Source of the DNA: Kitasatospora cheerisanensis KCTC 2395
GTDB lineage: Bacteria; Actinomycetota; Actinomycetes; Streptomycetales; Streptomycetaceae
Assembly: GCF_000696185.1 (NCBI RefSeq)
Contig: NZ_KK853997.1
Location: 6,207,515-6,271,514 of the forward strand
Direction: 5' to 3'
DNA length: 64,000 bases
This document shows positions 5,079-41,601 of the stretch, in pieces. The notes beneath the pieces are model-generated. The model saw nothing but the letters and a program-made list of their open reading frames with translations, made no database searches and was not told where the DNA came from. Both the position numbers and the translations under genes were made by a program. The number at the start of each line of letters is the position of its first letter. Positions within the stretch are counted from its first letter, which is position 1.

Positions 5079-5385
5079 TTGGGCAGCCACCGCCTCGCGC
5101 AGGCCACTGCCCCGGACAGCCCGCTGGAGCTCGTCGAGCGGCCGGTGCCCGCGCCGGGGCCGGGGCAGGTGAGGATCGCCGTCGAGGCGTGCGGGGTGTG
5201 CCACAGCGACGCGATGTTCGTCGGCGGCGCGCTCCCCGGCGTCTCGTTCCCGGTCGTCCCCGGGTACGAGATCGCCGGCCGGATCGCGGAAACCGGCGAG
5301 GGCGCGGAGGCCTTCGGGTGGCAGGTCGGCGACCGGGTCACGGTCGGCTGGTTCGGCGGCAGTTGTGGCACCCCGGTCGCCGACA
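5079..5385 (+). pseudogene. Truncated zinc-dependent alcohol dehydrogenase (N-terminal GroES-like part only)
   Basis: A TTG start nine bases after AGGAG begins about 100 residues of clear medium-chain zinc alcohol dehydrogenase. ELVERPVPAPGPGQVRIAVE is followed by the catalytic zinc motif CGVCHSD, a PGYEIAGRI segment and GDRVTVGWFGGSCG. Homology then stops abruptly at about 5380, just where the structural-zinc cysteine cluster should begin. The Rossmann domain is absent, and a normal enzyme has about 340 residues. The following 190 bases hold no recognisable remainder. This is a true loss of the 3' two thirds, not a single-base slip. Confidence 0.75.
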
Positions 5386-6823: not shown

Positions 6824-7641
6824 TCAGGGTCGGCAGGATGCCGTTCGGGCTGGCCGGCGGCCGGGCCGGGGCGGGCGGTGGTAGGCCACCACGAGGGCGT
6901 GCCGCCGCCGCGGGGTGCGGCCGCCGCGGCCCACCCAGCCCAGGGAGCGGAGCGCCGCCAGGATGCCCGCCGCGCCCGGCCGGTCCGGCCGGTGCACCAG
7001 CGGGTCGTCCCCGACCGCCGCGCCGAGTGCGGGTTCGGCGCCGCCGACGATCACGCCGTGGGCGCCGAGCCGGAACAGCGACAGGTCGTTGAGCGAGTCG
7101 CCGGCCACCAGCACCGTGTCCATCGGCCAGTTGAGCTTCTCGGCCAGTGCCCGCACCGCCGCGCCTTTGGAGGCGCCGGCCGGCAGGACGTCGAAGTAGC
7201 GGTCCCCCGAGTACACCCAGGCCAGGCCCGCCCCGGCCACGGCCGCGGTGAGTTCGCCGGTGAGACCGGCCGGCTCCAGGTAGTACGAGCAGCGGCCGTC
7301 CTGTGGCACGCCGCGCTGGTACTCCAGGGCCGGGAAGCGGTCGAGTGCGGCCCGCACCCGCTCCGATCCGGGCCAGCCGGCGCGCAGTTGGCCCTGCAGC
7401 GGCTCCACGGCGGAGAAGTCGGAGCCGTCGAGCAGGGTGGCGCCGACGTCGGCGACGATCCAGCGCGGGCGGGGACGAGGGGGTCGCGCAGCACCTCCCG
7501 GACCGAGGCCGGTCCGCGGCCGGTGGCGAAGACCACCGTCACCTCGGGGTGCCGGTCCAGTGCCTCCCGCAGCCGGAGCCGGCCGCCGGAGTCGCCGCCG
7601 AGCAAGGTGCCGTCCAGATCCGTGACCAGAACCCTCGACAT
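6824..7641 (-). CDS. HAD-IIB sugar-phosphate phosphatase, frameshifted; probable N-terminal half of a GgpPS-like fusion
   Basis: The ATG at 7641 opens with LVTDLDGTLLGG, the HAD nucleophile motif, and FATGRG. Near 7465-7483, a G-rich run, the frame must shift by one lost base to continue as RWIVADVGATLLDG, SYYLEP and YFDVLPAGASKG, ending with motif IV GDSLNDLSLF. The composite resembles sucrose-phosphate phosphatase-type HAD enzymes. Bacterial bifunctional GgpPS proteins are known to carry such a phosphatase ahead of a GT20 synthase, as would be the case here if both frame breaks are errors. It lies 40 bases after the PfkB gene in the same direction. As written, the gene would not give an active protein. 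Confidence 0.7.
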
Positions 7642-8635: not shown

Positions 8636-8666
8636 AGCATACGGCGGCCCGGGCGCCCGTGGTCAG
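8636..8666 (-). promoter_or_regulatory. Possible promoter giving a leaderless PfkB transcript
   Basis: On the minus strand TATGCT (8641-8636) lies six bases before the ATG at 8629, with CTGACC (8666-8661) as a possible -35 box 19 bases further up, inside the end of the upstream gene. Transcription would begin at or next to the A of the ATG. The 19-base spacer is on the long side. Confidence 0.35.
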
Positions 8667-9244
8667 GAGTCGGCGAGCGGCCAGGACTCGATGTCGCGGT
8701 AGTGGATCGGGCCCGGGCCGCGGCCGATGTTGCTGCCGACCAGGTGGAGGCGCTCGGTGCGCCAGCTGCGGCCGGTGAAGCCGGCGAGCGCGGCGGCGCA
8801 CTCCGGGACGCCGTCCGGGTCGTCGCGGCGGGCGCGGGCCAGGGTCAGGTGCGGGTGCAGCGGGCGGTCCCGGAACCCGATGCCGTGCGAACGGATCAAC
8901 TCCCGGACGTCGTCGGCCAGCCGGTGCAGTCCTTCGAGGTCCCCGGCGATGCCGCTCCACAGCAGGCGCCCGTCGAAGTGGCCGCCGCCGTGCAGGGCGA
9001 GCCGCAGGGCGGGATGGGAGGCGGCCGCCCCGGCCAGCGTGGACCGGAGCAACGGGACGGTGGTGACGGGCAGTTCACCGAGGAAGGCCAGGGTGATGTG
9101 CCAGTCCTCGATCCGGTTCCAGCGCAGCCGCGGGTAGCCCGCGTAGGCGGGTCGCAGGGCGCGGGCCAGCTCGTCCTTGGCGTCGTCGGGCGGGGCCAGC
9201 GCCACGAAGACGCGCACGGTCGAGGGCTCGGGGTGATCGTCCAC
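8663..9244 (-). CDS. thpR: RNA 2',3'-cyclic phosphodiesterase (2H/LigT family)
   Basis: The 193-residue protein carries the two HxTx motifs of the 2H phosphoesterase superfamily: HITLAFLG near residue 49 and HPHLTLAR near residue 130, here with leucine at the variable position. Family members open 2',3'-cyclic phosphates at RNA ends to 2'-phosphates. Length matches ThpR/LigT. The GTG at 9244 has no convincing ribosome-binding site, so an internal start, such as the GTG before RVFVALAPP, is possible. It is separate in function from the sugar genes that follow on the same strand. Confidence 0.85.
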   Translation of the reverse strand: MDDHPEPSTVRVFVALAPPDDAKDELARALRPAYAGYPRLRWNRIEDWHITLAFLGELPVTTVPLLRSTLAGAAASHPALRLALHGGGHFDGRLLWSGIAGDLEGLHRLADDVRELIRSHGIGFRDRPLHPHLTLARARRDDPDGVPECAAALAGFTGRSWRTERLHLVGSNIGRGPGPIHYRDIESWPLADS

Positions 9245-9286: not shown

Positions 9287-9528
9287 TCAGGGCCGGTCGG
9301 GGTCCGCTTCCCGGTGGATGTGCAGGTCGCCCTCCATGACGGTGTACAGGGCGGCGTGCCCGGACGCGGTGTTGTGCTGGGTGCGCCCGGCCGCGGCCTC
9401 CGGGTCGGCCGGGCGGTGGCGGGGGCAGGGGCGGTGGTCTCGACGTGGTTGCCGCGGCCGACGACGACGGGCCCGTGGGCGTCGCCGCCGATGCGGACGG
9501 TGTGGCGGTCGCCGGATTCGGTGGCCAT
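9287..9528 (-). CDS. Small two-motif protein of the cyclase/NTPase island (frameshifted)
   Basis: The ATG at 9528 follows GAGGAG and opens with HTVRIGGDAHGPVVVGRGNHVE. After an alanine/proline stretch, one base appears lost in a G/C run near 9405-9440. The next frame then ends sensibly with TQHNTASGHAALYTVMEGDLHI and a TGA at 9289-9287. The intact product would have about 80 residues. Its first half repeats a GDA-PVVVG motif seen in the next gene's N-terminus. Its tail matches the YAVQ-GDQ tails of the proteins at 14227-15408. No enzyme domain is present; an adaptor role is inferred. The frame break lowers certainty. Confidence 0.55.
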
Positions 9529-9545
9529 GGGGTTCTCCTCGACGG

Positions 9546-9605
9546 GGGCTGACGGGCGGCGGGCTGACGGGCGGCGGGCTGACGGGTGACGGGCTGACGG
9601 GTGGT
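9546..9605. repeat. Four tandem copies of a 15-bp repeat
   Basis: Four consecutive 15-mers begin at 9546, 9561, 9576 and 9591. All share GGGCTGACGGG and differ only in the last four bases. They fill the gap between the small motif gene and the NTPase gene, and the last copy reaches the NTPase stop codon. Confidence 0.9.
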
Positions 9606-12600
9606 CAGTGGGCTGCGGAGCGTTCCTGGCGGACGGTGGCGAGGAGCTGGTCGACCTCGGAGGCGGTGAGCACCAGGGCGACGATGGTGATGTCCTCGGC
9701 GCGGTCCCAGTAGGTGTTGCTGCCGACGGCGTTCGCCCGGCTCTGGCTCTCCGCGGCCACCTGCTGGTACACGGCGGCGCTCGACGGGTCGTCACAGGTG
9801 AGGGTGCCGGTGATGCCGCTGCCGGTGACCGGCAGCGGCTGCGGCCCGCTGGAGCAACTGCCCGCCGGGCGGCCGTCGATGCTGAGCTTGCCGACCGTCA
9901 GCTGGACGTTGACCTGCGAGAGCTTCCGGACCACCGTGTCGCCCTGGAGGATCTTCGCGGTGACGGTCTCCCTGACGTGGCAACCGGCGGCGTCGCAGTT
10001 CACCCCGCTGTCGCCGCTCTTGTCGAAGTCCAGCGAGCCGTAGCGCGCCGTCCTGAGGTCCTTGGCGTACTTCTCCAGGCCGTCGTACATCGCGCCGACC
10101 TCGGCCGGCGCGACCGTCGACAGGTCGACCGAAGAGGTCTCCCACAGCGGGGAGTTGGCCTCCATGGCGCGCGACAGCTGCCCGTCCTTGGGGAGGTGGA
10201 AGTTCATCGCGCTCGGCGGCTCCCAGCGCAGGAAGCGGTACGGCGCGTCCCGGGAGACGTACAGGTAGCCGGAGGTGGTGTCGGCCCGCAGCGCCGGGAC
10301 GCCGTTGACGTCGGTGGTCTCCGGGGCCTTCGCGGACGGCAGCCGCGGCCGGTCGGCGAGGGCCGCCGAGAAGCGCTTGGCCAGGTCGGCCGGCGTCTCG
10401 TACAGCGACATCTCCTGCGTCAGGCGGCTGCCGCCGTCGGCGGTCCGGTCGCCGAGGCCGTCGTACGTCCACAGGCGAAGGTCGAGGTCCGAGGCGTGCC
10501 AGCGCGAGTAGTCCTTGCCGCCGATGCTCAGCAGGTCCTGGGAGTTGGTGTCGGACTCCATGGTGCGGCCGGTGAGGTGGCTGGTGCCGTACTTCTCGCC
10601 GTGCGGGGTGACCGTGACGTCGTTGAGGTACTCCTCGACGTTCCAGTCGCCCTGGTACCGGACGCCCGGCGCGGCGGCCAGCGCCTGCACCGCCTGGTCG
10701 AACGGCTCCCGCAGCGCCTTCCCGCCGCCGACCGCCGTGCCGTTGCTGCCGTCCTTGCCTCCGCCGCCTCCGCCGCCGGACGAGACCGACCAGGTGACCG
10801 CGCCCGCCCCGGCGAGCAGCACGGCCAGCGTGATCAGCAGCGCCTTGCCGCCCAGCAGGCCGGCGGTGGCGGTCGCCCCGACTCCCGCGCCCGCGGCGCC
10901 CGCGGCGGACGTCCCGGCGGCGGCGTGCCCGGCCGCGGCGTGGCCAGCCTGGGCGGTGGCGTGGCCGGTGGTCGCGTGGCCGGCCTGTGCCGTTGTCGCG
11001 TGCTGCGCCGCCGGTGCGGCGGCGTGCGGTGCGGCGGCGTGCGGTGCGGCGGCGTGCGGTGCGGCGGCGTGCGGTGCGGCCGCGGCGGGCTGCGCCGGTG
11101 CGGGCGACAGGTTGGCCATGTGGGAGGTCACCGGGTCGACGTGCGCGGCGCCGGGCGTGGCGGCTCCGTGCGTCGCGGCCCCGGGCGTGGCGGCCCCGGG
11201 CGTGGCGGCGCCGTGGGCCGGTGCCGCGCCGGGCAGGCCCGGGGCGGGGCCTGGGCGGGGAGGAGCGGCCCGGGTGCGGCGTGCTGGGCGTTGAGCGCGG
11301 CCGTCGCGCCGTGCAGGTCGCCGATCGCCTTCCACAGCAGGACGGCCTCGCCGAGCAGCACGGCGGCGATCACCCGACGGCCCGTCAGCAGGCTGCGGAC
11401 GCCCTCCTCGTGGACGAAGAAGGTCTGGGCCGGCCGGTCGCCGGCTTGCCGGGCGGCCTCCCAGCCGCGGCCGAGGATCCGGCCCCAGGCGTCGGGGCGC
11501 AGCGCGCGGGCGAGTGCCGGGGCGGCGGCCCGGCCAGGTCCACCGCGAGCTCGGCCCGGCCGGCCGTCTCGGCGAGTGCGGCGGCGCGGTCCAACGCCCG
11601 GCTGTGACGTGCGACTTCGGCCGGGTCGGTGTCCGGCCGGGCGACCCACGCGGTGAGCTGCGCGCAGAGCCGCTCGAACGGGAACGGGGAGGTCCGGCCG
11701 AGGGCGGCGACGGCGACGTCCGGCGGGCAGCGGTAGCCGTGCTGCTCGGAGCGGAGCAGGCCGACCTCGGTGAGCCGCTCGCACACGGCCGCGGCGTCGG
11801 GCACTTCGACGATCGCGCCGATCCGGTCCGGGGCGAGTTCCGCGCCGTCCAGGGTGGCGAGCAGGCGCAGCACCCCGGCGGCCGGGGCGTCGAGTCCGTG
11901 GAGCAGCAGCGGGACGATCTCGGCGACCTCGCCGGCCCGGGGCAGGGCGCCGTCGGCGGGGAGCGCAGCCGGGCGAGGGCGGCGGCGCGGACCAGGTGCA
12001 GCGGGCGGCCCTGGGCGGCCTGCCACAGCGCGGTCGCCGCGGCCGGTTCGTCCTGGGCGAGCGGGCGGTGCAATTCGCGGGCGAGCAGGTCCAGGCCGGA
12101 GGTCCGGTCCAGTCCGGCGAGTTCGACCAGCGCGCCGTCCTCGGGGAGCAGCGACGCCCGGTGGGAGGCCAGCACGAAGGTCGCCTCCGGAGCGAGCGCG
12201 GCGAGCGCGAGGGCCTGACCGCGGGTCAGGTCGGCGTTGTCGAGGTACACGGTGACCCGCACCCCGGCCAGCAGGCGCCGCAGTTCGGGCTCGGACGGGG
12301 CGTAGCCGACGGCGTCGTAGCAGGCCTCGAAGATCTCCTGCGCCAGGTCGGCGACCTCGCGGCCCAGGGCGTCGAGGTAGACCCTTCCGTCGGGCGCGGC
12401 GGTCGGCCGGTGCGCGGCGTGGCGGAGCAGGGTACTGGTGCCGGTCCCGGGCGGGCCGTACAGCTGCACCAGTCCGCCGGCGCCGATCGCCCGTTCCAGC
12501 TCGGCGAGTTCGGCGGCGCGGCCGAGCGGGGCGGGCCCGCGGCGGGGGAGCAGCGCGACCTGTTCGCGGCGGACCGGGTGCGGCCGGCTGCCGGGCACCA

Positions 12601-12783
12601 GGAGGGTCACCGAGGAGCCGTGCCGGGCGTCCACCACCAGGCTGTGGTCGCCGACCACCACCGGTCGGAGGGCGTCGCCTTCGAGGTCGAGGCGGCGGTC
12701 GTGGCCGACGGCGGGCCCGGCCGGCCTGCTCCGCCGGCGGCGTCCGTCGTGCTCCTGGTGTCGGACTCGCCCGGTTCTTCCAT
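9605..12783 (-). CDS. Membrane-anchored P-loop NTPase with low-complexity linker and extracytoplasmic domain (frameshifted)
   Basis: One long protein is spread over three frames. The ATG at 12783 gives a short N-terminus; after a lost base near 12700-12730 it continues with LDLEGDALRPVVVGDHSLVV. An NTPase domain follows: Walker A-like YGPPGTGTSTLLRH, then VTVYLDNADL. Further single-base losses near 11958, 11525 and 11250 are needed to read the helical second half. Then comes an Ala/Pro/His-rich linker (PHAAA repeats), a transmembrane segment ALLITLAVLLAGAGAVTW near 10850-10800, and a roughly 330-residue outer domain with four cysteines. The Walker lysine is preceded by GT and replaced (GTSTLL), so ATP binding may be altered. 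The architecture resembles STAND-type NTPases of signalling or conflict systems; the function is inferred. Confidence 0.6.
11013..11072. repeat. In-gene 15-bp tandem repeat encoding PHAAA units
   Basis: Four perfect copies of a 15-mer (GGTGCGGCGGCGTGC on the plus strand) start at 11013, 11028, 11043 and 11058, followed by a partial copy. Read on the minus strand they encode repeated PHAAA. A related run of PGAAT-type units lies at about 11147-11218. Together they form the flexible linker before the membrane segment of the NTPase. Confidence 0.9.
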
Positions 12784-12963
12784 CGCGCAGTCTCTCCCGG
12801 CCGTGGATCGCGACCGTTTCCTCGTGGGCGGGCCGCGAGGGCGGCCGGCCGGTACGAAAGGTGCGGGGCCCGCCGGGCTGCGGGCGCGCGGCAGGTTACG
12901 GAACTGCTTGCGGCGTCCCGGTATTGGTCAGGCTAGTGCGGCCGGGGCGACGAGACCCCGTCG

Positions 12964-13365
12964 AACGACGGTTTCCGCCAGGGCTGTTCACTGCACCTCC
13001 CCGAGTGCCGCCGCCGGGCCGGGTGGGCGGTGCGGGGTTCGGGGAAGGCGGGCTGTTCGGGGTGTGTCGTGTTCTCCATTCGGGCGGTGCGTGACCGCTA
13101 ACGGCGGTTTCGGCCATGGCTGATCGCCGCACCTTCCCGAGTGCCGCCGCTGGGCCGGGTGGGCGGTGCGGGGTTCGGGGAAGGCGGGCTGTTCGGGGTG
13201 TGTCGTGTTCTCGACCCGGGTGGTGGTCGCGAACGGCGTTTTCCGCCATGGCTGTTCACTGCATCTTCCCGAGTGCCGCCGGCGGGCCGGGTGGGCGGTG
13301 CCGGGTTCAGGGGAAGGCAAGCCCTTCGAGGAGTGCCATGTTCTCGACCCGGACGGTGCGGTACC
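12964..13365. repeat. Three tandem copies of a 131-136 bp repeat derived from the 3' end of the Crp gene
   Basis: Copies start at 12964, 13100 and 13232, each opening with AACG and sharing GAGTGCCGCC, GGGCCGGGTGGGCGGTG and a GTTCTC-containing end. The third copy includes the last 20 or so codons of the Crp/Fnr gene. The two outer copies have decayed versions of the same segment (GTGTGTCGTGTTCTC against GAGTGCCATGTTCTC). This looks like tandem duplication outward from the gene end. The 12784-12963 stretch before it holds nothing recognisable. Confidence 0.85.
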
Positions 13366-14026
13366 CGGTGGTGACTGCCCCGGCCTCGCGCAGTCGGCGC
13401 AGCGCCTTGTGCACGGTGGGCTCGGCCGCGCCGGACAGCGTCGCCAGCTCCGGCTGGGTGATCGGCCAGTGGATCACCGCGCCCGCGCCGGCGCGTTCCC
13501 CGTAGGTGACGGCGATCTGGTGGATCACCCGGGCCAGCCTGGTCGCCGTGTCGCAGCCGGCGAAGTCGATCCGGCGGTCGTTGGCGACCCGCAGCTTGGT
13601 CACGATGGATTCGTTGACGGCCTGCGCGATCCGCGGCTCGCGCCGCAGGCAGTCGAGGAACTCCGCGCGGCCCACCACCCGGGCGGTGACCTGCCCGCAG
13701 GTGGTGACCGTCGCCGACCGCGGCCGGCCGTCCAGCGCGGCGAACTCGCCGACCAGGTCGCCGCCCATCCGGACGGCCAGCAGGGCGTCCCGGTGGTCGT
13801 GGGTGCGGCCGGTCGCCTTGACCACGCCCGCCAGCAGCACCAGCAGGAAGTCCGTCCGGTCCGACTCCCGCAGCAGCACCCGGTCTGCCGGGTAGCGGAC
13901 TTCGGTGCCGAGCGCCAGCAGCCGGTCCCGCTCGGCCGGCGGCAGCCCGCCGAGCAGACTCGCCGCGGGCCACGTCCGGGCGCCCCCGCCGCCGCCCCGG
14001 CGGTCACGGTCGCTGGCTGCCACCAC
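13307..14026 (-). CDS. Crp/Fnr-family transcriptional regulator
   Basis: The 239-residue protein has an N-terminal cyclic-nucleotide-binding fold (LLRESDRTDFLLVLLAG, then GGDLVGEFAALDGRPRSATV, the phosphate-binding-cassette region) and a C-terminal winged helix with TQPELATLSGAAEPTVHKAL as the HTH. The cassette keeps GE and the RSATV arginine typical of cNMP binders. It is transcribed divergently from a class III cyclase-like gene 200 bases away, suggesting that both belong to one signalling unit. Its 3' end is embedded in the tandem repeat described separately. Target genes are unknown. Confidence 0.9.
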   Translation of the reverse strand: MVAASDRDRRGGGGGARTWPAASLLGGLPPAERDRLLALGTEVRYPADRVLLRESDRTDFLLVLLAGVVKATGRTHDHRDALLAVRMGGDLVGEFAALDGRPRSATVTTCGQVTARVVGRAEFLDCLRREPRIAQAVNESIVTKLRVANDRRIDFAGCDTATRLARVIHQIAVTYGERAGAGAVIHWPITQPELATLSGAAEPTVHKALRRLREAGAVTTGYRTVRVENMALLEGLAFP

Positions 14027-14226
14027 TCTCCTGCCCCGTGCTGCTCCGGGCGCGACCGCCCCGTGGGCCGCGCCGGTGGGACCAGTATGCGTCCGGCGGT
14101 GTCCGGGCCCGGCCCGAAATCCCGTATTCCGACGGGGTGTCGGGCCGGTCGGTCCGGCACGATGGGAACGGGGGCGGCGTGGTCCGCGGGGACGGGCAAG
14201 CGGCGACAGATCATCAGGAGGTCCGG

Positions 14227-14973
14227 ATGGAATGGGAGTTGGGGTACCGGGCGGTGCTCGCGGTGGACATCGAGCGCTCCGCCGGGCGCGGCGACCCGGC
14301 GCTGCTGGCGATCCGTGAGGCGCTGCGCGCGATGTTGCGCGAGGCCGTCGAGCGGAGCCGGATCGACTGGGAGGCCTGCCGGGTCGACGACCTGGGCGAC
14401 GGGCTGCGGGTCACCGCCCCGCCCGGGGTGCGGAAGACGGCACTGGTCCACCCGCTGTTCGACGAACTCGCGGCCCGGCTGCGCGCGCACAACCGGCTGG
14501 CCGGGCCGCTCACCTCGATCCGGGTCCGGACGGCCCTGCATGCCGGCGACGTCCGGCTCGGCCCGGACGGGGAGACCGCCGGCCGCCCGCTGGAGGTGCT
14601 GGCCCGGCTGCTCGACGCGCCCGCGGTCCGCTCCGCGCTGGCCGAGGCGCCGGAGAGCGTCGCGGTGCTGGCCCTCTCGGAGCACTTCCACGAGGAGACG
14701 GTGCAGCCCGGCCACCCCGGGATCGAACCCGAGGACTACCGCCGCGTGGCGGTCCGCAACAAGGAGTTCACCTCCTCGGCGTGGATCCGGACGGCCGCAC
14801 CGGCCGCACAGGACGCCCCTGGCACCGACCCGGCCACCGCCACCGCCACTGCCGCCGCGCCCGCCGTCGCGCCGCCCGCCGGGCCGTCGCGGATGACGAA
14901 CCGGGCGACCGGACACGGCGTCGTCTACGCCGTCCAGAACGGCGTCCAGCACATCACCACCACCCGACCCTGA
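14227..14973 (+). CDS. Class III nucleotide cyclase-like protein with YAVQ tail
   Basis: AGGAGG five bases before the ATG at 14227 fixes the start of a 248-residue protein. The first 190 residues follow the class III cyclase pattern: AVDIERS with Asp14, DDLGDGLRV with Asp58, and VRTALHAGDV. Both metal aspartates are present. The helix reading AGRPLEVLARLLDA has glutamate where active cyclases have asparagine, so catalysis is uncertain. A proline/alanine linker leads to the tail GHGVVYAVQNGVQHI, shared with its neighbours. Fifteen bases separate it from the next gene. A divergent Crp regulator makes cNMP signalling plausible, but activity is inferred. Confidence 0.7.
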   Translation: MEWELGYRAVLAVDIERSAGRGDPALLAIREALRAMLREAVERSRIDWEACRVDDLGDGLRVTAPPGVRKTALVHPLFDELAARLRAHNRLAGPLTSIRVRTALHAGDVRLGPDGETAGRPLEVLARLLDAPAVRSALAEAPESVAVLALSEHFHEETVQPGHPGIEPEDYRRVAVRNKEFTSSAWIRTAAPAAQDAPGTDPATATATAAAPAVAPPAGPSRMTNRATGHGVVYAVQNGVQHITTTRP

Positions 14974-14988
14974 AGGAGAAGCCGCTCC

Positions 14989-15408
14989 ATGGACCAAGAA
15001 CTCGTCACCCTCGCGGAGTCCGGCGCCGCGGTGCTGGTCGGCGCGATGGCCACCGACCTGTGGCGATCCGTCAAGGACGGCACGCTCGCGGTCTTCCGCC
15101 GGCTCGGCCCGGACCGGCGGCGCGCCGTCGCGGAGCAGCTCGACCGCAACGCCGAACTGGTCCGCGGCGCGGACCGCCCCGAGGACGCCCGGCAGGCCCT
15201 GTTCGCCTTCTGGGCCCTGGAGTTGGCGGCCCTGCTGCACCAGGACCCGGACACCGCCCCGGACCTCGCCCGCCTGGTCGCCGCCCACCGGGGCGAACAG
15301 CAGCGCCTCTCCTACAGCCAGCACAACACCGCCCACGACCGCGGCGCCGTCTACGCCGTCCAGCACGGCGACCAGCGCGTGGTCCGGGCCGCCGACGAAC
15401 AGCCCTGA
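14989..15408 (+). CDS. Small helical partner protein with YAVQHGDQ tail
   Basis: The 139-residue protein starts at an ATG nine bases after AAGGAGAA, which overlaps the stop of the cyclase-like gene, so the two are co-transcribed. Residues 1-105 are predicted helical with no recognised enzyme motif and resemble small proteins often found beside NTPase or cyclase genes in streptomycetes. The end, SQHNTAHDRGAVYAVQHGDQ, matches tails in the cyclase-like protein and the small protein at 9287-9528. A docking or adaptor role is inferred from the shared motif alone. Confidence 0.7.
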   Translation: MDQELVTLAESGAAVLVGAMATDLWRSVKDGTLAVFRRLGPDRRRAVAEQLDRNAELVRGADRPEDARQALFAFWALELAALLHQDPDTAPDLARLVAAHRGEQQRLSYSQHNTAHDRGAVYAVQHGDQRVVRAADEQP

Positions 15409-41312: not shown

Positions 41313-41601
41313 GACGGGTCCTTCTCTCGTGGGAATACGGGGATGTGAGGGGGCGTCAGGCACTCGTCCGGTGCGTTCCGGGGTTGCCGACGACCACCAA
41401 GCTAAGCCCCGCCCGGGGCCCGTTCCTGCCCGCTGCGCGCCCGGCGCTGTTCCCACAACGCACACCGCGGGCGGCTGCAACTGCTGTGCACTCCAAGGCA
41501 ATTGGCCATGCGCTGGGGAGGCCCTCGACGGCCCGCGCGCTGCCTACGGTCGCAGGGCGGCCCGGCCGGGTCGTGCACAGTCAGCGGAAAGGCGGCACCC
41601 C

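What the first reader, a model, noticed from the sequence alone, without database searches (positions are those of the whole stretch)
9287..15408. Candidate undescribed signalling/conflict island sharing two short motifs
Five adjacent genes combine a small protein, a membrane NTPase with an external domain, a Crp/Fnr cNMP sensor, a class III cyclase-like protein and a small helical protein. A GDA-PVVVG motif occurs in the N-termini of the small protein and the NTPase. A QHN-G-YAVQ-GDQ tail occurs in the small protein, the cyclase-like protein and the last protein. Shared short tails across unrelated architectures suggest docking into one complex, with a cyclic nucleotide as the possible signal to Crp. 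Related NTP-dependent conflict systems are known in multicellular actinobacteria; this exact set is not one I recognise.
Basis: partly seen in the sequence, partly recalled or inferred. Interest (0 to 1): 0.75.

Follow-up and report, generated by a model that had tools for sequence, protein, structure and literature searches.

The report
Two-motif adaptor in bacterial signalling module
A five-gene module of soil bacteria appears to wire a membrane receptor to a cyclic-nucleotide enzyme and a membrane-active protein through a tiny adaptor that carries a different sticky tag at each end; it looks like an elaborated relative of known bacterial amyloid-type immune signalling, and nothing in it has been tested at the bench.

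Summary
In this Kitasatospora genome, and intact in K. griseola and many Streptomyces, a five-gene module recurs: two-motif adaptor (SML), membrane STAND-type NTPase (NTP), Crp/Fnr regulator, class III cyclase-fold protein (CYC), small helical-bundle protein (HEL). The adaptor's motif A matches the NTPase N-terminus; its motif B matches the CYC and HEL tails. Genome-wide, the adaptor profile has four significant hits, all in this locus. In the window SML and NTP are frameshifted. Motif A co-varies between adaptor and cognate NTPase beyond phylogeny (39 loci, 0 of 20000 permutations); motif B shows no such pairing. Relatives fuse motif A to CYC, fuse CYC to HEL, or swap HEL for a two-TM protein. 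Motif A resembles the RHIM/BASS3 amyloid core but lacks its Gln. A palindrome sits where a class II Crp activator would bind upstream of CYC-HEL. Best reading: receptor-nucleated, amyloid-like relay through a bispecific adaptor to a cyclase (signal to Crp, positive feedback) and a BELL-like membrane effector. Known paradigm (NLR/BELL amyloid signalling), new variant. Amyloid formation, cyclase activity and biological role are inferred.

The parts
9287..9528 (-). SML: two-motif adaptor gene, frameshifted in the window (ATG 9528-9526, stop 9289-9287)
   Evidence: intact 78-aa orthologue in L061
9433..9498 (-). motif A of SML: VRIGGDAHGPVVVGRGNHVETT
9314..9379 (-). motif B of SML, in the other frame: QHNTASGHAALYTVMEGDLHIH
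9605..12783 (-). NTP: STAND-type NTPase with one predicted TM segment and external C-terminal domain; broken over several frames in the window
   Evidence: TM from orthologues
12626..12691 (-). motif A at the N-terminus of NTP: LDLEGDALRPVVVGDHSLVVDA
13307..14023 (-). CRP: Crp/Fnr regulator with cNMP-binding domain and HTH_Crp_2
14119..14138 (.). candidate CRP operator ATCCCGTATTCCGACGGGGT; its 16-bp core CCCGTATTCCGACGGG is the only exact copy in the genome
14158..14163 (+). -10-like hexamer CACGAT, first base 29 nt downstream of the first base right of the operator centre (centre falls at -41.5 by convention)
14227..14973 (+). CYC: class III nucleotidyl cyclase fold (about residues 1-193) with disordered linker and motif B tail
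14893..14958 (+). motif B tail of CYC: MTNRATGHGVVYAVQNGVQHIT
14989..15408 (+). HEL: five-helix bundle with hydrophobic N-terminal helix and motif B tail (BELL-like)
15319..15384 (+). motif B tail of HEL: QHNTAHDRGAVYAVQHGDQRVV

Best explanation
This is a receptor-to-second-messenger signalling module wired by short assembly motifs. NTP is a membrane-anchored STAND-type NTPase whose C-terminal domain lies outside the cell (one TM segment: predicted). When it senses its signal it oligomerises and presents a cluster of motif A (inferred). SML is a bispecific adaptor: its motif A is recruited and templated by the NTPase, which brings its motif B together; that in turn recruits the motif B tails of CYC and HEL (inferred from motif matching, motif-A co-variation and fusions). 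Clustering lets the class III cyclase domains pair and make a cyclic nucleotide, which binds CRP; CRP, at the palindrome centred at -41.5, switches on CYC-HEL, a positive feedback loop. HEL, with its hydrophobic N-terminal helix, acts on the membrane like BELL domains. The motifs most likely work as RHIM/BASS3-like amyloid cores. Shown by sequence: the module, the motif sharing, the motif-A co-variation, the fusions, the predicted fold of CYC, the palindrome and its spacing. Inferred: amyloid, cyclase product, CRP ligand and binding, HEL activity, stimulus.
For: Whole-genome confinement of the motifs. Recurrence: of 24 genomes with the adaptor (23 full-length plus one broken copy) among 150 sampled from the family, CYC was found beside it in 23, NTP in 23 (one a fragment), CRP in 22, HEL in 22 (one a fragment). 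Motif A co-variation: partial Mantel r=0.521 (n=36 loci with CRP, 0 of 5000), 0.595 in the GPVV class (n=22, 0 of 5000); a control segment gives -0.151 (3962 of 5000). Class swap: the Catenulispora SML carries a different N-motif that matches a nearby NACHT protein. Fusions: motif A-CYC, with no SML or HEL found, in Nocardia and Actinomadura; CYC-HEL in L103 and, by eye, L074; the HEL slot taken by a two-TM protein with motif B in Streptomonospora. RHIM-like core in 16 of 24 SML and 17 of 24 NTP windows against 4 hits in 189,021 background residues; the BASS3 peptide of PMC8086366 scores in the top 0.085% of random 24-mers on the 12-residue core of the motif A matrix (top 0.8% on 17 residues). 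CYC model matches class III cyclases, best Z 17.6; metal Asp and transition-state Arg in 55 of 55. Palindrome and spacing. A HEL paralogue in the same genome sits in the standard two-gene arrangement with an NB-ARC protein bearing a matching N-terminal motif.
Against: No bench data. Motif A lacks the Gln of the RHIM core G-(I,V)-Q-(I,V)-G (PMC7885112, passages), and an archaeal BASS3-like peptide does not stand out on the motif A matrix (7.7% of random 24-mers score as high). Motif B shows no locus-specific co-variation beyond relatedness, so pairing at that end rests on similarity and fusions. In the DVSGT class the motif-A signal is weak (partial r=0.283, 173 of 5000), and single sites mismatch in some pairs (L100, L104, L106). 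CYC lacks the catalytic Asn (N in 1 of 55) and the purine-specifying positions vary, so activity is uncertain. The Walker A Lys is Thr in the Kitasatospora NTPs (window GPPGTGTS). HEL has no significant fold match. The palindrome was not found in L092, L096, L097 or in the other two module types, and in L100, L103 and L104 its match to the consensus does not exceed the best of 100 shuffles. L062, L097, L106 and L157 have no HEL beside CYC though the other four genes are there.
Confidence: 0.58

Rival explanations
1. Non-amyloid docking: motifs A and B are ordinary beta-strand docking tags that hold a soluble complex of NTPase, adaptor, cyclase and HEL; no templated polymer forms.
For: Motif A lacks the RHIM Gln, and motif B was not matched to any described amyloid motif here; the co-variation is equally expected of plain docking.
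Against: RHIM/BASS3-like core; HEL paralogue in a standard BELL/NLR-type pair; the motifs are short, terminal and on flexible linkers, as in known amyloid-signalling proteins.
Confidence: 0.22
2. SML is a brake, not a bridge: a two-ended decoy that caps motif A polymers on one side and motif B polymers on the other.
For: It is small, has no other domain that Pfam recognises, and is encoded with the receptor rather than with the effectors.
Against: In Nocardia and Actinomadura, where no SML was found, motif A is fused to CYC itself, which argues that SML serves to bring motif A to CYC.
Confidence: 0.13
3. CYC is a pseudo-cyclase that binds a nucleotide or scaffolds HEL; CRP responds to another ligand or to none.
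For: Catalytic Asn replaced by Glu in 47 of 55; purine-specifying positions variable.
Against: Both metal Asp and the Arg are invariant in 55 of 55; Asn is missing in some established cyclases (PMC4886424, passages); CRP keeps the GE...PR cassette.
Confidence: 0.25
4. The same wiring serves envelope stress or development rather than immunity.
For: Membrane NTPase with external domain; the window neighbours look, by eye, like housekeeping and biosynthetic genes; some module types lie beside kinase-, phosphatase- and vWA-like genes (by eye).
Against: Patchy presence (23 of 150 genomes) and the likeness to NLR/BELL systems fit an accessory defence.
Confidence: 0.4

Closest known systems
Bacterial amyloid signalling (BASS) NLR/BELL two-gene systems (Dyrka 2020, not held; known here through passages of PMC7889193 and PMC8086366)
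   Same: STAND/NLR-type NTPase with a short N-terminal motif; small helical protein with hydrophobic helix and C-terminal motif in a neighbouring gene; RHIM/BASS3-like core; filamentous actinobacteria.
   Different: NTPase and HEL carry different motifs here, joined by a separate two-motif adaptor; a class III cyclase is a motif-bearing partner; a Crp regulator with its own candidate operator; the NTPase is membrane-bound with an external domain.
RHIM-based necrosome and fly Imd signalling (PMC7885112 and PMC7889193, passages)
   Same: Receptor to adaptor to effector relay by short amyloid motifs.
   Different: Bacterial; two distinct motifs on one protein of about 75-115 aa; second messenger output.
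Pycsar (recalled; PADLOC models)
   Same: Class III cyclase fold next to a cNMP-binding protein.
   Different: The cNMP-binding domain is fused to a Crp HTH, not to TIR or TM effectors.
VMAP and related conflict systems of Kaur 2020 (PMC7159879, passages and section 24)
   Same: NTPases, cNMP cyclases and occasional CRP-like regulators in multicellular actinobacteria.
   Different: No vWA-MoxR-VMAP core seen among the genes called at 2-20 kb of the window; no two-motif adaptor in the passages read.

Membership tests
BASS NLR/BELL amyloid signalling | NLR/STAND NTPase with short N-terminal motif | tested here: met
   Motif A at NTP N-termini; AAA_16 above cut-off in the L062 orthologue, below it in the window, L061, L085 and L068 copies
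BASS NLR/BELL amyloid signalling | The same motif at the C-terminus of the small helical effector next door | tested here: not met
   HEL carries motif B, not the NTPase's motif A; the link runs through SML. Met for the paralogous pair P0001/P0002 elsewhere in this genome
BASS NLR/BELL amyloid signalling | Motif belongs to BASS1-10 profiles | not testable with these tools
   Profiles not held; one BASS3 peptide resembles motif A, an archaeal BASS3-like one does not
BASS NLR/BELL amyloid signalling | Effector belongs to the BELL domain family by profile | not testable with these tools
   No BELL profile held; Pfam and NCBIfam give no family above cut-off for HEL; helical bundle with hydrophobic N-terminal helix
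BASS NLR/BELL amyloid signalling | Motif forms amyloid and templates | not testable with these tools
   Needs bench work
Class III nucleotidyl cyclase | Class III catalytic-domain fold | tested here: met
   Foldseek and VIA-align: all 50 rows shown in each are nucleotidyl cyclases, best Z 17.6 over 165 residues at 2.8 A; by sequence profile only weak, E 0.094 and 0.62, and no Pfam family
Class III nucleotidyl cyclase | Two metal-binding Asp and transition-state Arg | tested here: met
   D14, D58, R127 in 55 of 55
Class III nucleotidyl cyclase | Transition-state Asn | tested here: not met
   Glu in 47, Asn in 1 of 55; Asn is not universal among active cyclases
Class III nucleotidyl cyclase | Makes a cyclic nucleotide | not testable with these tools
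   Needs assay
Crp/Fnr regulators | cNMP_binding plus HTH_Crp_2 | tested here: met
   55.5 and 44.9 bits, above cut-offs
Crp/Fnr regulators | Responds to a cyclic nucleotide | not testable with these tools
   Cassette residues retained
Pycsar | Effector with cNMP-binding domain fused to TIR or TM domain | tested here: not met
   PADLOC PycTIR/PycC matches to CRP lie within residues 34-183; CRP ends in a Crp HTH
Pycsar | Cyclase matches the PycC model | tested here: not met
   CYC: no PADLOC family up to E=1

The most novel reading that the evidence does not exclude
A bacterial three-tier signalosome in which a dedicated small bispecific adaptor converts one amyloid signal (nucleated by a transmembrane STAND receptor) into a second, different one that switches on a class III cyclase by clustering and a membrane effector at the same time, with Crp closing a positive feedback loop: amyloid-gated second-messenger production.
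Probability: 0.45. Interest if true: 0.88.

Novelty: new variant of a known kind. Interest (0 to 1): 0.74.

Why it matters
If true, bacteria use the same logic as animal signalosomes (receptor, two-ended adaptor, effector) with two distinct self-assembling motifs on one tiny protein, and amyloid-type assembly would drive a second messenger and not only cell killing. It makes directly testable, in cultured Streptomyces and Kitasatospora, how specificity between such motifs is encoded: nature has supplied 39 motif pairs that co-vary as a set, and several fusions.

Tried and rejected
Rejected: Pycsar membership (see membership test). Mobile element: CYC gave no phage match and only weak matches (29-37% identity, at most 76% of the query) in 8 of 72,556 plasmid records. 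A wider CRP regulon: one exact core site in the genome, three with two mismatches, and in total about as many sites with up to three mismatches as the reversed control (83 against 77). E. coli-type TGTGA-N6-TCACA sites: best 8 of 10 in one region, 5-7 in the others. HEL fold: no Foldseek match with E<=0.001, best E 0.18; PDB sequence search gave nothing below E 0.1. Locus-specific pairing at motif B: SML-HEL similarity beats all 20000 permutations but the partial correlation is -0.03 once relatedness is controlled; SML-CYC 0.11 (334 of 5000); CYC-HEL -0.08. The first anchoring of motif A misplaced L141 (partial r there 0.469 for all, 0.648 GPVV, 0.330 DVSGT, 0.201 replication); one search repeats it corrected. 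An orphan HEL paralogue in the genome (L114/L159) has no NLR gene called beside it.

Rows dropped. Co-variation set: L081 (same genome as L061), L147 (same as L082), L083/L158 and L154 (broken copies), L101/L105 (same contigs as L065/L067), L065/L067 (partner is a NACHT protein outside the NTP family), and loci without both SML and NTP. Near-identical loci (L085, L088, L094; L061, L082) were kept in the 39; with L082, L088 and L094 removed from the first set the partial r is 0.571 (n=14, 2 of 5000). The partial Mantel drops 3 of 39 loci for which the script found no CRP within 5 kb of the NTP start; its control used a slightly different NTP body segment as covariate. Operator alignment: 17 regions chosen by hand out of 29 (28 loci plus the window); left out were L086, L088, L094 (near-copies of L085), L068, L072, L069-L071, L073 (other types), L092, L096, L097 (no palindrome). 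Genes in fetched loci were called by a script of mine, so an absence there means 'not called'.
Full report
What is in the window. The window is part of an 8.17 Mb, 5-contig genome of the same genus as G035, which is Kitasatospora griseola (same 433,406-base contig). Between an RNA 2',3'-cyclic phosphodiesterase gene (8663-9244) and unrelated genes from 15.9 kb lie five genes: SML, NTP and CRP on the minus strand, CYC and HEL on the plus strand. SML is frameshifted and NTP is split over five successive frames in the window, but identity to K. griseola stays at 67-82% along both, and K. griseola has both intact in the same order. A neighbouring alcohol dehydrogenase homologue matches over only 97 of 341 residues. 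I read the breaks as likely assembly indels; recent decay is not excluded.

The motifs are real and local. SML has motif A near its start and motif B near its end. A 10-sequence SML profile found, in the whole genome, four hits below E=0.01: the two pieces of SML, the HEL tail and the CYC tail; a fifth has E=0.99. The CYC profile found only CYC at E<=1. The HEL profile found HEL, two paralogues elsewhere (1.3e-22, 2.7e-17), the motif B tails of SML and CYC (1.4e-4, 1.5e-4) and two hits at 0.06 and 0.35.

The module recurs. One scan of 84,980 species genomes with two conserved CYC stretches returned 26 loci. Counting by hand: SML in 20 of 26 (one, L083, a broken copy without motif A), NTP in 22 of 26, CRP in 22 of 26, HEL domain in 20 of 26. 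Of the six without SML, three (L084, L086, L103) have their NTP gene cut by the contig end, two (L099 Nocardia, L102 Actinomadura) carry motif A at the N-terminus of CYC, and one (L096 Kutzneria) has neither SML nor NTP. From the other side, an SML profile search of 150 genomes of the family found 21 full-length single hits plus two in adjacent pieces (G000, G074), 23 of 150, none with two copies, and one partial hit (G097) that is a broken copy; six further genomes had weaker partial hits. In those 24 genomes CYC was found beside SML in 23, NTP in 23 (one a fragment), CRP in 22 and HEL in 22 (one a fragment); L154 (G089) and L158 (G097) are broken copies, and L062 and L157 have no HEL.

Motif A co-varies with the partner. 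Across 39 loci SML motif A is more like its own NTPase's motif A than like others' (BLOSUM62 54.4 against 36.7; 0 of 20000 permutations reach it). Controlling for distance of the NTPase body and of CRP, partial Mantel r is 0.521 (n=36, 0 of 5000). Within the largest class (GPVV, n=22) it is 0.595 (0 of 5000), and the 20 residues just after motif A in the NTPase give -0.151 (3962 of 5000). In the DVSGT class it is weaker (0.283, n=14, 173 of 5000), and in the replication set alone 0.285 (n=15, 46 of 5000). The first set alone (24 loci) gave the same picture. In L093 the usual Asn is Ile on both proteins; in L104 only SML has the Ile, and L100 and L106 mismatch at the V/A site. Between classes the match is complete by eye: GPVV-like with GPVV-like, NG..VVA with NG..VVA, DVSGT-like with DVSGT-like. 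In Catenulispora the SML N-motif VSNTVSGGNQYAPVVQSGEITNLTF faces VRNEAGGTSYGPLVQAGKIESIIF on a nearby NACHT protein (38 bits, cut-off 26.7). Motif B does not do this: SML-HEL and SML-CYC similarity is explained by relatedness (partial r -0.03 and 0.11). So motif A carries receptor specificity and motif B looks like a common bus.

Fusions and swaps. Motif A fused to CYC, with no SML and no HEL found (L099, L102). CYC fused to HEL with one motif B tail (L103; L074 by eye). HEL replaced by a 115-aa protein with two predicted TM segments and motif B (L092). HEL alone beside a large protein with weak STAND-type matches whose N-terminus, by eye, resembles motif B (L078-L080). These are what a bridge from SML to CYC and HEL predicts.

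The parts. NTP: weak but consistent AAA_16/STAND-type matches, above the Pfam cut-off in one orthologue of four scanned; Walker A GxxGxGKS in 23 of 29 rows, GTGTS in the Kitasatospora copies; a TM segment at about residue 580-760 with a domain beyond it in all 26 copies not cut short, some with a second, weaker candidate (hydropathy only). CYC: AlphaFold pLDDT 86-97 by tens over residues 1-190, tail below 50; every PDB hit shown is a nucleotidyl cyclase. D14, D58 and R127 are invariant in 55 sequences; the catalytic Asn is Glu in 47. PMC4886424 (abstract and passages) notes that several established cyclases lack the Asn. HEL: five helices, tail disordered, hydrophobic N-terminal segment in 31 of 37 rows (the two-TM protein of L092 set aside). 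CRP: solved relatives are Crp/Fnr-family proteins; the cassette GE...PR is invariant in the 11 aligned copies and the following Ser present in 10 of 11.

Link to amyloid signalling. PMC7889193 (passages) describes BASS motifs: short motifs at NLR N-termini and at C-termini of a small helical BELL domain with a hydrophobic helix, also on CHAT and TIR proteins. PMC8086366 (passages) gives a BASS3 peptide shown to aggregate, VDLRDAKGVQVGDGNVQINRF. On the 12-residue core of a motif A matrix it is reached by 0.085% of 19,959 random 24-mers (0.8% on 17 residues); an archaeal BASS3-like peptide (7.7%) and a fungal sigma peptide (27%) are not remarkable. The pattern [VI].[VIAL]G..N.[VLIMT] occurs in 16 of 24 SML and 17 of 24 NTP windows and 4 times in 189,021 background residues. 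PMC7885112 (passages) gives the RHIM core as G-(I,V)-Q-(I,V)-G; motif A has no Gln there. In this same genome a HEL paralogue (P0001) overlaps the start of an NB-ARC protein (P0002, 26.3 bits, cut-off 23.5) and the two share ...GNARIYQAGSSLHV / ...GQGRVYQALGDLHIV: the standard two-gene arrangement. HEL is therefore very likely of the BELL kind, although no BELL profile was available.

Operator. In 17 hand-picked CRP-CYC intergenic regions aligned on a palindrome (consensus ATCCCGTATTCCGACGGGAT), two positions outside it stand out: A at +30 and T at +34 from the centre, in 17 of 17 (2.3 and 2.4 bits). They fit a -10 hexamer NAnnnT (C first in 15 of 17) starting at +29, which puts the palindrome centre at -41.5, the place of a class II Crp activator site (geometry recalled, not from a call). 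The palindrome match itself beats the best of 100 shuffles in 14 of the 17 (not L100, L103, L104); the sequences are related, so these are not independent counts. Five new loci of the same type: four have the hexamer at +29, one at +28. The DVSGT type has a different conserved element (GTATTAGTAG and variants), about 30 nt before TACGAT as measured by eye in one copy. The 16-bp core occurs once exactly in the genome.

What is not shown. Amyloid formation, the cyclase product, CRP ligand and binding, the action of HEL, the stimulus and the biological role. I searched the paper library with nine queries and, in the listings and in passages of seven papers, saw no description of a two-motif adaptor or of a class III cyclase in an amyloid-signalling module; the founding BASS paper is not held, so I cannot say it is absent from print.

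Verdict. A real, conserved, modular system; a new variant of bacterial NLR/BELL amyloid signalling rather than a member by the letter, because the receptor and the helical effector carry different motifs joined by SML.

Noticed in passing
L113:1498-1914 and 1911 onward (own genome C1 near 7605151): HEL paralogue overlapping an NB-ARC protein with a matching short motif: a standard two-gene BASS-like pair in the same genome.
   Followed up: partly
L159:7148-7534 (own genome C1 near 141234): Orphan HEL paralogue with a tail VALQIGRADTSHV that fits the RHIM core better than motif A does; no NLR gene called beside it.
   Followed up: partly
window 5079-5369 and 6824-7641: Further broken reading frames (alcohol dehydrogenase homologue; by eye, HAD-like phosphatase ORFs in two frames), suggesting indel errors in this assembly.
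   Followed up: partly
L068-L073: In these two module types the module genes sit beside phosphatase-like, kinase-like and vWA-like genes; FHA- and Ser/Thr-kinase-like genes flank some (names by eye).
   Followed up: no
L063:10479-11060, L064:10607-11128, L066:5793-6314, L065:9744-10301: A 170-190 aa protein next to CYC whose end resembles, by eye, the end of the cyclase domain; possibly a degenerate second cyclase subunit.
   Followed up: no
L061 and L082 NTP; window NTP N-terminal ORF (9605-12661): Walker A Lys replaced by Thr (GTGTS) in Kitasatospora, also GTS in L091 and L102, while 23 of 29 rows keep GKS.
   Followed up: no
L141-L151 CRP-CYC intergenic regions: A different conserved element, GTATTAGTAG and variants, about 30 nt before TACGAT, in the DVSGT-type modules.
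   Followed up: partly
window 41326-41341: Two-mismatch copy of the operator core just upstream of an isochorismatase-like ORF.
   Followed up: partly
L092:2685-4634, L095, L075-L077: A second, more distant Crp-cyclase pair with different GD-rich tails, sometimes in the same locus as the main module.
   Followed up: no
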